Below, one piece after another: positions 54,475 to 60,138 of a DNA stretch of 60,293 nt. Every line of letters starts with the position of its first letter. Position 1 is the stretch's first letter. Below the pieces are notes generated by a model. It was not told the DNA's origin. It was given only the letters and a program-made list of their open reading frames with translations, and searched no databases. Source of the stretch: Syntrophobacterales bacterium (GTDB taxonomy: Bacteria; Desulfobacterota; Desulfobaccia; Desulfobaccales; 0-14-0-80-60-11). The stretch spans positions 1-60,293 of the forward strand of contig JAGVAH010000112.1 of NCBI GenBank assembly GCA_020060385.1. The letters run 5' to 3'. A program made the translations under genes and the position numbers.

Positions 54475-54554
54475 TCCCCCCTTCACCGAAGAAAATATCC
54501 CTCTGCCATCACCAGGTCCGATAAAAAGGGACATCCTCCCCATTAGGGTATTTC

Positions 54555-54676
54555 ATACCCTTTCGCAATCAAAAGACATTGAACTGTAGGGGCGAATCTT
54601 GTATTCGCCCTGTGCGGGTGGGTGAACACCAGGTTCGCCCCTCCAAGAAAATTGCCGTTAGATTGCGACTTGGTAT
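54555..54676. repeat. nested modular palindrome, two layers
   Basis: The outer arms are ATACCCTTTCGCAATCAAAA and GATTGCGACTTGGTATC. The inner arms are GTAGGGGCGAATCTTG and AGGTTCGCCCCTCC. It shares both layers with the palindrome at 16.3-16.5 kb. Confidence 0.75.
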
Positions 54677-54787: not shown

Positions 54788-54816
54788 TTGACAATGATAC
54801 CCTACCTGGGTATGGT
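54788..54816 (+). promoter_or_regulatory. promoter of the CstR-like gene with an operator in its spacer
   Basis: A perfect TTGACA (54788-54793), 17 bases and TATGGT (54811-54816) form the promoter. The spacer and first bases of the -10 contain ATACCC-TACCT-GGGTAT (54797-54813), a perfect 6-bp inverted repeat. This is the TACCC..GGGTA type bound by CsoR-family repressors. A protein bound there would block RNA polymerase. Confidence 0.7.
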
Positions 54817-54948
54817 AGCTATAACGAGACCCTAAGCATCAGTGAAACCCAGGCCCCGGCTGGAAAATGATTCCAGCCCGGGGGACTGGGTGGCGGGGGC
54901 GGAAATGAGTCTTAATGACTTGACTATTCATAGAAAAGTATAGGTATT

Positions 54949-55245
54949 ATGCATCCCCCAGACGAATTAGAAAAGCAGGTGCAGGCAGATATCCACAGCC
55001 GTTTAAAGAAGATCGAAGGGCAGATCCGGGGTCTGCAAGGCATGATTGCCGCGGATAAGGAGTGTGAGCAGATCCTCACCCAGGCCAGAGCCGCCCACTC
55101 CGCCTTAAAAGCGGTGTGCAACCTGATTTTAAGGGTTTATCTGATCAAATGTTACGGCAAAAGGGGGGAGGAGCAGTCCCCGGAGGATGAATTTAACCGG
55201 CTGGACCGGGCCATCGATATGCTTTCCCGGTTTGTTGATAAATAA
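54949..55245 (+). CDS. CsoR/RcnR-family repressor of the CstR (persulfide-sensing) type
   Basis: A 98-residue all-helical repressor with the family core RLKKIEGQIRGLQGMIAADK. In copper-sensing CsoR the metal ligands are Cys, then His 25 residues on, then Cys four further. Here the positions are Cys39, Tyr64 and Cys68: both cysteines are kept and the His is lost. The same Cys-x28-Cys pair without His is known from CstR, which forms di- and trisulfides with sulfane sulfur. Downstream lie a sulfur carrier and redox genes, and a fitting operator is in the promoter, so it is probably an autoregulated persulfide sensor. Confidence 0.85.
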   Translation: MHPPDELEKQVQADIHSRLKKIEGQIRGLQGMIAADKECEQILTQARAAHSALKAVCNLILRVYLIKCYGKRGEEQSPEDEFNRLDRAIDMLSRFVDK

Positions 55246-55316
55246 TGGCCCCAAGCCCATCAATCTTGATTCTCCCGGCTCCCAGGCCGGGAACATTATC
55301 CCTAAGGAGAGAAACC

Positions 55317-55571
55317 ATGACCACCGCTGATCTCACTGCCGTAAAACCCGCCGCCGTGGTGGATTGCCGGGGCAGCGCCTGCCCGGGGCCCCTCATGGAA
55401 GCCAAGAAGGCCATCGCCACCGTCAAGGTGGGGGAAGTGCTGGAAGTGCTTTCCAGCGACCCCGGCACCAAGGAAGATATCCCCCTGTGGGCCAAGAAGG
55501 TGGGCCATGAATTCATCGGCTCCCTGCCCGCGGATGGCTATGACCGCATCTTTGTGACCCGGAAGAAATAA
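55317..55571 (+). CDS. TusA-family sulfur carrier in the HdrA cluster
   Basis: An 84-residue TusA/SirA-fold protein with VVDCRGSACPGPLMEAKKAI, where the second Cys (before Pro) is the persulfide site and a further Cys precedes it. TAAGGAGAG marks the ATG at 55317; an in-frame ATG at 55245 overlapping the repressor stop would add a poor extension. By position it would carry sulfane sulfur to or from the redox proteins encoded next. Confidence 0.88.
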   Translation: MTTADLTAVKPAAVVDCRGSACPGPLMEAKKAIATVKVGEVLEVLSSDPGTKEDIPLWAKKVGHEFIGSLPADGYDRIFVTRKK

Positions 55572-55583
55572 GGGGAGGGCCTC

Positions 55584-56018
55584 ATGGAGGCCGCCAAAGC
55601 CAACGGCAAGATCCTGATACTGGCGGAAGACGCCTGCGCCTATCCCGGGGCCGACGCCGCCGGCCAGGGGCACATGAGCTACTCGGCCAACACTTACATA
55701 ATGCGGGTGAAGGCCGCGGTGCTTTTCCCGGAGCAATTCTATCTGGATTGCTTTCACAAGGGCATTGCCGGCATCATCATCATGTCCTGCGGGGTGGAAA
55801 CCCCCTACCATGGCGCCTATGAAGCCCTGGCCCGGCGCATTGACCGGGTCTACGCCCTGATGAAGCAAGAAGGTCTGGACATCCGCCGCCTGCGGCTCAC
55901 CGCCATTTGCACGGTCTGCACCCGGGCCTTTATCAAGGAAGTGCAGCAGATGCAGGACCTGGTCTCCCAACTGGGCCCGCCGGGAAGCGAGCCAGCGGCC
56001 GCGGCGGGCGCGGCCTAA
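55584..56018 (+). CDS. MvhD/FlpD-type hydrogenase iron-sulfur subunit homologue
   Basis: A 144-residue protein matching the MvhD/FlpD family core: FHKGIAGIIIMSCGVETPYH, GAYEALARRIDRVYALMKQE and LRLTAICTVCTRAFIKEV. Four to five cysteines (ACAYP, LDCFHK, MSCG, ICTVC) could hold a 2Fe-2S cluster. Some family Cys positions, notably in the usual GEChY segment, are replaced. In methanogens MvhD passes electrons between a hydrogenase or other donor and HdrA. It lies directly upstream of two hdrA-like genes. GGGGAGGG precedes the ATG. Confidence 0.75.
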   Translation: MEAAKANGKILILAEDACAYPGADAAGQGHMSYSANTYIMRVKAAVLFPEQFYLDCFHKGIAGIIIMSCGVETPYHGAYEALARRIDRVYALMKQEGLDIRRLRLTAICTVCTRAFIKEVQQMQDLVSQLGPPGSEPAAAAGAA

Positions 56019-56039: not shown

Positions 56040-57338
56040 ATGGCAACACCTAAAAAATTGAGCTTCGACGCCCTGGTCCTGGGCGGCGGCATCGCCGGGC
56101 TGGAGGCGGCCCTCAATCTCGCGGAGCAGGATTTCTCCGTGGTGGTGGTGGAACAGGACGCGTCCATCGGCGGCAAGATGATCCGGCTCTCCAAGGTCTT
56201 TCCCACCCTGGATTGCTCCAGTTGCATCACCACCCCCAAGATGGCGGCCGCCGCGCATCACCCCCAGATCACCATCCTCACCTACTGCGAGTTGCAAACC
56301 CTTAAGCGGCAAAACGGTGGTTTGGTGGCCGGGATCGTCCAAAAGCCCCGGTACGTGGATGCAGAGAAATGCATCGGCTGCCGCCAGTGCGAATACCAGT
56401 GCCCGGTGCTGGTCCCCGACGCCGAGCAAGGGGGGTTGGCGGCGCGCAAGGCCGCGTATATCCCCTTTTCCAACGCCATTCCCCAGACGGCCTTGATCGA
56501 TACCGCCAATTGCATTCTTTGCGGCCGCTGCGCCAAAATTTGCCCCACCCAGGCCGTCGATTATTTTGAGCAGCCGGGGGAATTCACTTTGACTGCCGGC
56601 GCCGCGGTGATCGCCACCGGCTTCGAGATGATTCCCCTTAAGGACAAGGTCCAGTACGGCCAGGGCCAGATTCCCAACGTCATCACCGCCTTGCAGATGG
56701 AAAGGCTGCTGGCCCCCCACGGCCCCTACAACCGGGTCCTGAGGCCTTACGACGGCATGGAGCCGGATAACATCGCCTTCATCCAGTGCGCGGGCTCCCG
56801 GGATCAGAGTCTGGGGTTGGGGTATTGCTCCCGGGTCTGCTGCATGTACGCGGTGAAGGAGGCCATGCTCCTGTCCGGGGCCCTGCCCCTGGCGGACATC
56901 ACCGTTTACTACATGGATATCCGGGCCTTCGGCAAGGGCTATGAGCAGTTCTATCAAACCGCCCAGGCCATGGGAGTGAATTTCGTGAAGGGGAAGGTGG
57001 CCTACCTGGACCCCGGGGAAAACGGCGCGGTCAAGGTGCGCTACGAATCCCAGGATGCCGCAGGGGGAGTGCAGGTGGCGGAACACGACCTGGTGGTTTT
57101 GTCCCTGGGCCTGGTCCCCGCCTGGGACCCCCAAGGCCGCTGCGTCCTTTCCACTGCCGGGGATAAATTCATCAAGACCGTCAAACCCAAGACCTCCCCC
57201 ACCCTGACCGATCTGGAGGGGGTCTTTGTGGCCGGGGCCGCGGCCGGACCCAAGGATATCGTGGACAGCATCGTCGAGGCCGGGGCCGCGGCCATGGAGG
57301 CTTCCCGCTATCTGACTTCAGTGAGCAGTAAGCAGTGA
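56040..57338 (+). CDS. HdrA/QmoA-like FAD iron-sulfur protein, internal ferredoxin type
   Basis: A 432-residue flavoprotein. The N-terminal FAD site is LVLGGGIAGLEAALNLAEQ, then FPTLDCSSCITTPKM as in HdrA. An inserted ferredoxin domain (about 105-180) has two 4Fe-4S motifs (CIGCRQCEYQCP, CILCGRCAKICP). The thioredoxin-reductase-like second half has QCAGSRD and YCSRVCCMYAVKEA. It lacks the N-terminal CHCG region and the C-terminal ferredoxin of full HdrA. The related QmoA carries electrons between quinones and APS reductase. No aprAB or qmoC is present here, so a different partner is likely. Confidence 0.8.
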   Translation: MATPKKLSFDALVLGGGIAGLEAALNLAEQDFSVVVVEQDASIGGKMIRLSKVFPTLDCSSCITTPKMAAAAHHPQITILTYCELQTLKRQNGGLVAGIVQKPRYVDAEKCIGCRQCEYQCPVLVPDAEQGGLAARKAAYIPFSNAIPQTALIDTANCILCGRCAKICPTQAVDYFEQPGEFTLTAGAAVIATGFEMIPLKDKVQYGQGQIPNVITALQMERLLAPHGPYNRVLRPYDGMEPDNIAFIQCAGSRDQSLGLGYCSRVCCMYAVKEAMLLSGALPLADITVYYMDIRAFGKGYEQFYQTAQAMGVNFVKGKVAYLDPGENGAVKVRYESQDAAGGVQVAEHDLVVLSLGLVPAWDPQGRCVLSTAGDKFIKTVKPKTSPTLTDLEGVFVAGAAAGPKDIVDSIVEAGAAAMEASRYLTSVSSKQ

Positions 57339-57446: not shown

Positions 57447-59384
57447 ATGGCCAAGAAGAAAAAACCTGAACCCAAAACTGAGCCAACCACCGGCGGCAAA
57501 GTCGGCGTCTACGTCTGCCATTGCGGCGGCAATATTTCCGACGCGGTGGACGTGGAGCAGGTTTGCGCCCAGGCCCGCAAGATCCCCGGAGTGGTGGTGG
57601 CCCGGGACAATATGTTCATGTGTTCCGATCCCGGCCAGGAGATGATCATCGAGGATCTGAAAAGCGGCCTGGTGGACCGGGTGGTGGTGGCCTCCTGCTC
57701 CCCCAGCCTGCACGAAACCACCTTCCGGAGCGCCCTGGCCCGGGCCGGAGCCAACCCCTATGTCTATGAACAGGCCAACCTTAGGGAACAGGTGAGTTGG
57801 GTGCACCACGGCCCCGCAGCCACCTCCAAGGCCAGCCGCCTGGTGGCCGCGGCCGCGGCCAAGGCGGGCCAACTAAAACCTTTGGCCCCCCTGCGGGTGG
57901 AGGTGCAGCCCCGGGCTGCGGTCATCGGCGGCGGCGTGGCGGGCCTGAAGAGCGCCCTGGAACTGGCCCAGCGCGGCCAAGAGGTGATCCTCCTGGAAAA
58001 GAGCCCTTTCCTTGGGGGACAGGTGGCCCAGTTGGATCGCCTGGCGCCGCTGGGGGAAACCGCAGCCAGGATCATCGGCGAACTGGCGGCCGCGGTGCTC
58101 CAGCACCCGGCCATTAAAGTCTATACCTGCGTCCAGGTGGAGGGGTTCGAGGGGTACATCGGTAATTTCAAGCTCAAGGTGATTCGTAGGCCTCCGGGAG
58201 GCGGGGAATATGCGGCTCAATTATCTACTTTGAGTCAGTCAGGCCAAGGGCTGGGAGAATTCGTGCCCTTTGTGGGCCTCATGCCCGCCTCGATTCCGGA
58301 AACCCAAGAGGATATCCACCTGGAGGCCGGAGTCATCATTCTGGCTACCGGCATGCGGCCCTATGGACCCCGGACCGGGGAATACGGCTATCAAAAATTT
58401 CCCCAAGTGGTCACCCTGCCGGAATTCATCCGCCTCCTGGCCGCGGCCCCCCCGGGCGACACCCTGGCGCTGGAGGGGAGGCCCATCCGCGGCGCGGCCC
58501 TGATCCACTGCGTGGGCAGCCGCCAGATTCCCGGCGTCCATGAGGAAAATGAGGGTGGCTACCTGAACGAATATTGCTCCCGCACCTGCTGCGGGGCCAG
58601 TCTTTATGCCGCCAACCTCCTCCGGGAAAACTACCCCCAGACCCGGATCTTTGATTTTTACCGGGATATCCGCACCTATGGCCGGGGCCAGGAGGAGCTC
58701 TACACCCAGGCGGCCCACAACCAGGCGGTCTTTTTCCGCTTCGAGGCCGGGGAGGAGCCCCAGGTCCTGGAGAATCCCGACCCCCAGGGCCCTCCCCTGC
58801 TGGTCCGGGTGCAAGACGTCCTGACCTTCGGGGAGGAGATAGAGGTGCCCGTGGACCTGGTGGTCCTGGCCGTGGGCCAGGAGCCCAACCCCGTCGCCGA
58901 CCTGGTGGAGAAGATGAAGATCCCCGTGGCCGCGGACCGCTTCCTCCAGGAGGTGCATCCCAAGCTGCGCCCCGTGGAAGTGGCGGTGGCCGGCATCTTC
59001 CTGGCGGGCGCCTGCCAGGCCCCCTTTGACGTGGGGGAGACTTGCGCGGCTGCGGGCGCGGCCGCGGTGAAGGCAGCGGCCATTCTTTCCCGGGGGTATG
59101 TGGAACTGGACCCCTTTGTGGCGGAAGTTGATCTGAGCAAGTGCCAGGGCGCCGGCGCCTGCGTGGAGGCCTGCCTGGCGGACGGAGCCCTGACCATGGT
59201 GGAGTTGGAAGTGGGCGGCCAGAAGGTGAAGCGGGCCCAGGTCAACCCGGTCCTCTGTATCGGTTGCGGAGCCTGCGTGGCGGTCTGCCCGGAAAACGCC
59301 ATCAACGTCCAGGGCTGGACCCTGAAGCAGTTCGAGTCCATGGTGGACATGGTCGTCTCGGATGAGTACCTGGAAGGTGCTTAA
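57447..59384 (+). CDS. HdrA-like FAD iron-sulfur protein, N- and C-terminal module type
   Basis: A 645-residue flavoprotein. It has the HdrA N-terminal domain (VGVYVCHCGGNISDAVDV, VVVASCSPSLHETTFR) and an FAD site AVIGGGVAGLKSALELAQRG. IHCVGSRQ and EYCSRTCCGASLYAANLL follow, then a C-terminal ferredoxin with one normal cluster (CIGCGACVAVCP). The other cluster is degenerate (CQGAGACVEACLADGAL), losing the CxxCxxC spacing. It lacks the internal two-cluster insertion that the upstream protein has. HdrA subunits are the flavin bifurcation site of heterodisulfide reductases. The split across two proteins suggests they act as one complex with the MvhD-like subunit. Confidence 0.82.
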   Translation: MAKKKKPEPKTEPTTGGKVGVYVCHCGGNISDAVDVEQVCAQARKIPGVVVARDNMFMCSDPGQEMIIEDLKSGLVDRVVVASCSPSLHETTFRSALARAGANPYVYEQANLREQVSWVHHGPAATSKASRLVAAAAAKAGQLKPLAPLRVEVQPRAAVIGGGVAGLKSALELAQRGQEVILLEKSPFLGGQVAQLDRLAPLGETAARIIGELAAAVLQHPAIKVYTCVQVEGFEGYIGNFKLKVIRRPPGGGEYAAQLSTLSQSGQGLGEFVPFVGLMPASIPETQEDIHLEAGVIILATGMRPYGPRTGEYGYQKFPQVVTLPEFIRLLAAAPPGDTLALEGRPIRGAALIHCVGSRQIPGVHEENEGGYLNEYCSRTCCGASLYAANLLRENYPQTRIFDFYRDIRTYGRGQEELYTQAAHNQAVFFRFEAGEEPQVLENPDPQGPPLLVRVQDVLTFGEEIEVPVDLVVLAVGQEPNPVADLVEKMKIPVAADRFLQEVHPKLRPVEVAVAGIFLAGACQAPFDVGETCAAAGAAAVKAAAILSRGYVELDPFVAEVDLSKCQGAGACVEACLADGALTMVELEVGGQKVKRAQVNPVLCIGCGACVAVCPENAINVQGWTLKQFESMVDMVVSDEYLEGA

Positions 59385-59808: not shown

Positions 59809-60138
59809 ATGCCTGACACGCCGTTGGAAACAGATTCCCCAAAAGAGGCCCTGAAAAAGCTGAAGGCGGCCCGCAAAGAGCAGGTCGCCGCAGCCACCAG
59901 CCGCATGAAGGCGCAGCGCCGGGCAGTAAAGGCCATCAAGGAGAGCCTGGCCGACTCCGAGCTGACGGTGCCGGAAGTGGCCGCAGCCACCGGCCTGCCG
60001 GTGGACGAAGTCCTCTGGTATGTAGCCACCTTGAAGAAATATGGGGAAATCCTGGAAGGACCCAAGGCCGGCGCTTATTACCGCTACCGCCTGGGCCGGC
60101 CCCCGGCCCCGGAGGCAGAGACGGATGCGGCTGACTAG
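59809..60138 (+). CDS. small HTH-like protein downstream of the HdrA genes
   Basis: A 109-residue protein. The first ~45 residues are a Lys/Ala-rich helix (KEALKKLKAARKEQVAAATS). Residues about 50-85 read LTVPEVAAATGLPVDEVLWY then VATLKKYGEI, a likely winged-helix or HTH segment. A short Pro/Ala tail follows. I do not recognise the family. A DNA-binding role or a structural role with the redox complex are both possible. It is separated from the hdrA-like gene by 424 bases of repeats, so it may be transcribed alone. Confidence 0.65.
   Translation: MPDTPLETDSPKEALKKLKAARKEQVAAATSRMKAQRRAVKAIKESLADSELTVPEVAAATGLPVDEVLWYVATLKKYGEILEGPKAGAYYRYRLGRPPAPEAETDAAD

What the first reader, a model, noticed from the sequence alone, without database searches (positions are those of the whole stretch)
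54788..55245. Persulfide-sensor-like CsoR-family repressor with a matching operator between its own -35 and -10
Seen: Cys39, Tyr64 and Cys68 occupy the three CsoR ligand positions, so the copper-ligand His is missing while both cysteines are kept. A perfect ATACCC-N5-GGGTAT palindrome lies between a perfect TTGACA and TATGGT. Known: CstR-type members use this cysteine pair to sense sulfane sulfur. Inference: the gene is autoregulated and responds to persulfide, switching on the TusA/MvhD/HdrA genes behind it.
Basis: partly seen in the sequence, partly recalled or inferred. Interest (0 to 1): 0.72.

Follow-up and report, generated by a model that had tools for sequence, protein, structure and literature searches.

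The report
Dithiol CsoR-family repressor controlling sulfur genes
A sulfate-reducing bacterium carries a small DNA-binding protein, related to copper sensors but without their copper-binding histidine, that most likely shuts off its own gene and a sulfur-handling gene cluster behind it until reactive sulfur modifies two of its cysteines.

Summary
54949-55245 encodes a CsoR-family (PF02583) protein with Cys39, Tyr64 and Cys68 at the ligand positions. The operator is longer than reported: a 20-bp double inverted repeat, TACNNTACNNNNGTANNGTA, at 54798-54817. It spans the promoter spacer and the -10, and equals the selected consensus of Thermus TTHA1953, a dithiol CsoR-family repressor of sulfur oxidation. 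Exact copies occur twice in the 4.15-Mb genome, each before one of its only two CsoR-family genes. In 22 family genomes 8 of 9 copies precede such a gene.

In 129 relatives the C-H-C fingerprint goes with metal exporters (57/90) and C-Y-C never does (0/39); C-Y-C goes with sulfur carriers. The csoR-tusA-flpD-hdrA-hdrA order is kept in two congeners and partly in a third. The tree excludes the copper sensors (p 2e-9) and weakly excludes bona fide CstR (p 0.04); Deinococcota members are nearest. So it works like CstR/TTHA1953 but is not CstR proper, which has Asn.

Caveat: copper-type relatives carry the same operator, so the palindrome does not identify the effector. Sulfane sulfur is inferred; no binding or induction was tested.

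The parts
54788..54793 (+). -35 hexamer TTGACA
   Evidence: TTGACA kept at the paralogue (L007) and in L011, L172, L175, L176, variant TTGTCA in L009
54798..54817 (+). 20-bp operator TACCCTACCTGGGTATGGTA (TACNNTACNNNNGTANNGTA), overlapping the -10
   Evidence: exact match to the TTHA1953 consensus; 2 exact copies in the genome, both before CsoR-family genes
54811..54816 (+). -10 hexamer TATGGT, inside the operator
54847..54891 (+). strong stem-loop in the csoR leader; window-specific, role unknown
   Evidence: z about -3; not found in the relatives
54949..55245 (+). CsoR-family dithiol repressor (C39, Y64, C68; extra C57)
   Evidence: PF02583; best PDB sequence hit 7mq1, named 'csoR' there and known to me as S. 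pneumoniae CstR; tree
55272..55292 (+). small GC hairpin in the csoR-tusA spacer, present in four orthologous spacers
55317..55571 (+). TusA-type sulfur carrier
   Evidence: PF01206, 79.3 bits
55584..56018 (+). FlpD/MvhD-type delta subunit
   Evidence: PF02662, 65.7 bits
56040..57338 (+). short HdrA-type iron-sulfur flavoprotein
   Evidence: best NCBIfam match HdrA2 458 bits, below cut-off; not the genome's QmoA
57447..59384 (+). second HdrA-type flavoprotein
   Evidence: best NCBIfam match HdrA2 505 bits, below cut-off
59809..60138 (+). 109-aa protein of unknown family conserved at the end of the cluster
   Evidence: no Pfam hit; orthologues in L008 and L010 in the same place

Best explanation
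An autoregulated CsoR-family dithiol repressor. Reduced, it binds the 20-bp operator over the -10 and spacer of its own promoter and blocks transcription of csoR-tusA-flpD-hdrA-hdrA. When cytoplasmic sulfane sulfur (persulfide or polysulfide) rises, Cys39 of one subunit and Cys68 of its neighbour become linked by a di- or trisulfide, DNA affinity falls, and the TusA/FlpD/HdrA module, which would receive and redox-process that sulfur, is made. A second copy in the same genome does the same for a DsrE-like carrier and a cytochrome b561/multihaem protein. Shown here: protein family, fingerprint, operator, its genome-wide specificity, gene context and its conservation. Inferred: binding, effector, disulfide chemistry, co-transcription, and the role of the Hdr module.
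For: Operator equals the TTHA1953 consensus, and TTHA1953 loses DNA binding when C39/C68 are cross-linked; the window protein has C39 and C68. Operator before both genomic copies and at 8 of 9 family sites. Fingerprint class against context: metal exporters 57/90 C-H-C against 0/39 C-Y-C, sulfur genes 3/90 against 16/39. Tyr before Cys39, typical of the copper class (59/90), is Glu here. Conserved order csoR-tusA-flpD-hdrA-hdrA in L008 and L010, csoR-tusA-flpD to the contig end in L009; DsrE2-type genes behind more distant relatives. Copper references are rejected as sister, p 1.8e-9. Sulfate reducer by gene content: sat, aprBA, qmoC and dsrA.
Against: No binding or induction data. TTHA1953 itself did not respond to NaHS. 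Not in the CstR clade. The operator is shared with copper-type relatives. 23 of 39 C-Y-C loci showed no sulfur gene with my limited reference set. The trees rest on only 74-77 columns.
Confidence: 0.68

Rival explanations
1. General thiol-redox switch: the cysteine pair reports oxygen, peroxide, HNO or electrophile stress through a plain disulfide, and sulfane sulfur is not the physiological signal.
For: TTHA1953 loses binding with H2O2 or Cu(II) under non-reducing conditions, and NaHS had no effect; CstR also reacts with HNO.
Against: The neighbours are sulfur carriers and Hdr-type electron carriers, not oxidative-stress genes, across relatives. NaHS is not a sulfane-sulfur donor.
Confidence: 0.2
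2. Copper or other metal sensor with a changed ligand set (Cys2 plus Tyr or the third Cys57), since the genome has no His-type CsoR.
For: Only two CsoR-family genes in the genome, both C-Y-C; the same operator stands before copper-type relatives; Cys57 could be a third thiolate.
Against: No metal exporter near any of 39 C-Y-C loci; Tyr before Cys39 is lost; grouping with copper references rejected.
Confidence: 0.07
3. The repressor controls only its own gene; tusA-flpD-hdrA-hdrA has its own expression signals and is merely adjacent.
For: A 71-nt spacer with a conserved hairpin separates csoR from tusA.
Against: Same strand, no forward terminator-like site in the spacer and no second operator there; order kept in congeners.
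Confidence: 0.1

Closest known systems
TTHA1953 of Thermus thermophilus HB8 (CsoR-family repressor of Sox genes; PMC10318464)
   Same: Same 20-bp operator consensus; two cysteines at 39 and 68; represses sulfur-energy genes; Deinococcota homologues (Meiothermus, Deinococcus) are C-Y-C and group beside the window clade.
   Different: Its targets lie far from its own gene, here they adjoin it; targets are Sox, here TusA-FlpD-HdrA. The TTHA1953 sequence itself was not available for the tree.
CstR of Staphylococcus, Enterococcus and Streptococcus
   Same: Fold, cysteine pair 29 residues apart, sulfur-transfer genes under control; Staphylococcus cstR upstream regions show ATACC-N6-GGTAT-type repeats.
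   Different: Separate clade (AU p 0.041); Asn instead of Tyr at the ligand position; no 20-bp operator with up to 2 mismatches in the three CstR-type loci; targets are detoxification genes.
YrkD of Bacillus licheniformis
   Same: CstR-like, represses its own gene and a downstream tusA/dsrE/rhodanese cluster, released by elemental sulfur.
   Different: Second operator after yrkD; SQR/PDO oxidation pathway; 50% identical to S. aureus CstR.
Copper CsoR
   Same: Fold, both cysteines, type of operator.
   Different: His ligand and Tyr before Cys39 absent; no copper genes near; grouping rejected by the tree.

Membership tests
CsoR/RcnR family (PF02583) | Profile match above gathering score | tested here: met
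   70.4 against 22.8 bits
CsoR/RcnR family (PF02583) | Conserved Cys at N-terminus of helix 2 (position X) | tested here: met
   Cys39
Copper CsoR | Cys-His-Cys ligand set | tested here: not met
   Cys-Tyr-Cys
Copper CsoR | Groups with copper CsoR references | tested here: not met
   AU p 1.8e-9
Copper CsoR | Cu(I) binding releases DNA | not testable with these tools
   needs purified protein
CstR | Two cysteines 29 residues apart, no His ligand | tested here: met
   C39, C68, Y64
CstR | Asn at the Y position, as in the Staphylococcus, Streptococcus and Enterococcus proteins | tested here: not met
   Tyr64
CstR | Falls in the CstR clade | tested here: not met
   CstR references form their own clade 99/97; union with the window clade AU p 0.041
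CstR | Controls sulfurtransferase genes | tested here: inconclusive
   adjacent in window and congeners; regulation not measured
CstR | Di/trisulfide formation by persulfides lowers DNA affinity | not testable with these tools
   needs purified protein
TTHA1953-type | Binds TACNNTACNNNNGTANNGTA | tested here: inconclusive
   exact site on own promoter and genome-wide specificity; binding not measured
TTHA1953-type | Sequence clade with TTHA1953 | not tested
   TTHA1953 sequence not available; Meiothermus and Deinococcus homologues group beside the window clade, 95/81

The most novel reading that the evidence does not exclude
A separate C-Y-C lineage of CsoR-family repressors, spread over sulfate reducers and Deinococcota, that senses cytoplasmic sulfane sulfur in order to run energy metabolism (TusA-FlpD-HdrA and DsrE-cytochrome modules) rather than detoxification. 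It would be a first sulfane-sulfur regulon for a dissimilatory sulfate reducer of this group.
Probability: 0.5. Interest if true: 0.6.

Novelty: new variant of a known kind. Interest (0 to 1): 0.46.

Why it matters
How sulfate reducers detect zero-valent sulfur and switch on sulfur-transfer and Hdr-type electron modules is little known. The literature searches here found no CsoR-family link to such genes in them. The operator gives a genome-searchable marker for the regulon, and the repressor gives a direct handle on what the TusA-FlpD-HdrA-HdrA module is for: find the inducer and one learns the substrate class.

Tried and rejected
The short ATACCC-N5-GGGTAT palindrome as a regulon probe: 9 sites at 1 mismatch against 6 for the control, too unspecific. 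The operator as evidence for persulfide: rejected, because copper-type relatives have it. A conserved leader riboswitch or attenuator: the leader hairpin is strong in the window (z -3.3) but not in five relatives. A second operator between csoR and tusA: none with up to 3 mismatches. HdrA proteins as the genome's Qmo: rejected, since sat-aprBA-qmoC lie together on another contig with the two flavoproteins of that operon between aprA and qmoC, 37-40% identical to the window's short HdrA. L011 as an orthologue of the window locus: by synteny it matches the other paralogue (shared upstream genes and a gltX-like gene), so its lack of tusA-hdr is not a loss. Fetching TTHA1953 through a Deinococcota centre failed. 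The whole genome was not available as a file. No structure prediction was run: monomer models would not tell the effector.

Full report
What is there. The window holds, on the + strand, a CsoR-family gene (54949-55245), TusA (55317-55571), FlpD/MvhD (55584-56018) and two HdrA-type flavoproteins (56040-57338, 57447-59384). A 109-aa conserved protein without a Pfam family follows (59809-60138). The regulator matches PF02583 with 70.4 bits. Its best solved relative by sequence is 7mq1, named 'csoR' in the PDB; from my own knowledge this is the S. pneumoniae persulfide sensor CstR. The paralogue's best hit is a copper CsoR, so best hits do not decide the class.

Promoter and operator. TTGACA (54788) and TATGGT (54811) stand 17 bases apart. 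This is an exact match to TACNNTACNNNNGTANNGTA, the consensus selected in vitro for Thermus thermophilus TTHA1953 (PMC10318464). TTHA1953 represses Sox genes, has its two cysteines at 39 and 68 and loses DNA affinity when they are disulfide-linked. The window protein has cysteines at the same numbers.

Specificity. In the window's genome (4.15 Mb, 175 contigs) the exact 20-mer occurs twice and its backward control never. Both copies stand before the only two CsoR-family genes. The second, C124:3892-3911, lies in the same promoter frame (TTGACA followed by the operator). Over 22 genomes of the family, 8 of 9 sites lie just upstream of a CsoR-family gene. Over 297 genomes of the phylum, about half of 20 exact sites do. 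In 137 fetched loci, sites with at most one mismatch stand before 50 of 129 C-Y-C or C-H-C genes, against 6 elsewhere in 1.28 Mb of flanks.

The operator does not name the effector. Exact sites precede 13 of 90 C-H-C (copper-type) genes and 8 of 39 C-Y-C genes.

The fingerprint is more telling. Of 90 C-H-C loci, 57 have a copper P-type ATPase or cation-diffusion exporter within 3 kb; of 39 C-Y-C loci none has (Fisher p 3e-13). TusA, DsrE, rhodanese, FlpD or HdrA genes are near 16 of 39 C-Y-C but 3 of 90 C-H-C loci (p 2e-7). Relatedness among rows inflates these p values. The residue before Cys39, Tyr in 59 of 90 C-H-C proteins and in the three copper references, is Glu here and Tyr in only 2 of 39 C-Y-C proteins.

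Place in the family. On a 66-row tree (74 columns) the window, its paralogue and four relatives form a clade (100/99) nested with other C-Y-C proteins of the family and beside three Deinococcota proteins, all C-Y-C (95/81). One of these, from a Meiothermus plasmid, sits among rhodanese genes. Forcing the window clade together with copper references is rejected (AU p 1.8e-9), and with CstR references weakly (p 0.041). RcnR, FrmR and InrS lie apart. The name 'CstR-type' is thus functional, not phylogenetic.

Context in relatives. csoR-tusA-flpD-hdrA-hdrA is kept in L008 (G016) and L010 (G017), and csoR-tusA-flpD up to the contig end in L009 (G014). L011 (G018) matches the paralogous locus by synteny. 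More distant family members (L172, L175, L176, L177, L183) have a DsrE2-type gene behind the regulator; one was checked by Pfam (PF13686, 137.9 bits), the rest by homology. In L012, TusA, DsrE, FlpD and HdrA genes lie on the opposite strand upstream of the regulator, which has a one-mismatch operator. The window's genome has sulfate adenylyltransferase, AprBA, QmoC and DsrA, so it is a dissimilatory sulfate reducer by gene content, and the window's HdrA pair is separate from the Qmo operon.

Mechanism. Reduced repressor on the operator hides the -10; sulfane sulfur links Cys39 and Cys68' across subunits, as described for CstR; affinity drops; csoR and, by read-through over a 71-nt spacer without a forward terminator-like site or second operator, tusA-flpD-hdrA-hdrA are made. 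The operator, its placement, fingerprint and context are shown here. DNA binding, effector, cross-link and co-transcription are inferred. TTHA1953 did not respond to NaHS, and NaHS is not a sulfane-sulfur donor, so that test does not settle it.

Limits. The genome is a draft; gene context was scored with 13 reference proteins only, so sulfur genes of other kinds were missed. The trees have few columns. The C-Y-C label is not monophyletic.

Noticed in passing
L007:4535-4897 (G000:C124): DsrE-like gene behind the paralogous regulator has an in-frame TGA after CPLHACKA; homologues in G018, G006, G043 and G026 also have one in-frame TGA and others have none. The genome has two tRNA-Sec genes, and a hairpin with a GGUC loop follows: most likely a selenoprotein of the known DsrE-like family (PMC1088965).
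   Followed up: partly
window 54847-54891: Strong stem-loop in the csoR leader (z about -3), not found in five relatives.
   Followed up: yes
window 55272-55292: Small hairpin between csoR and tusA, present at the same place in three orthologous spacers; possible processing or stability element.
   Followed up: partly
window 54546-54560: Perfect GGGTAT-TTC-ATACCC, the half-sites in reverse order, 250 bp upstream of the operator; about 0.1 expected by chance in the window at up to one mismatch.
   Followed up: no
window 54949-55245: Third cysteine (Cys57), conserved in the window clade of six and absent elsewhere in the C-Y-C set.
   Followed up: partly
window 59809-60138: 109-aa protein without Pfam match, conserved at the end of the cluster in L008 and L010.
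   Followed up: partly
G000, many contigs: 37 matching stretches to the short HdrA protein in one genome: a large HdrA-type repertoire.
   Followed up: no
G305:C289:899-918 (L185): Exact operator with no CsoR-family gene on the 6-kb stretch, in a genome with two CsoR-family genes elsewhere: possible target in trans.
   Followed up: no
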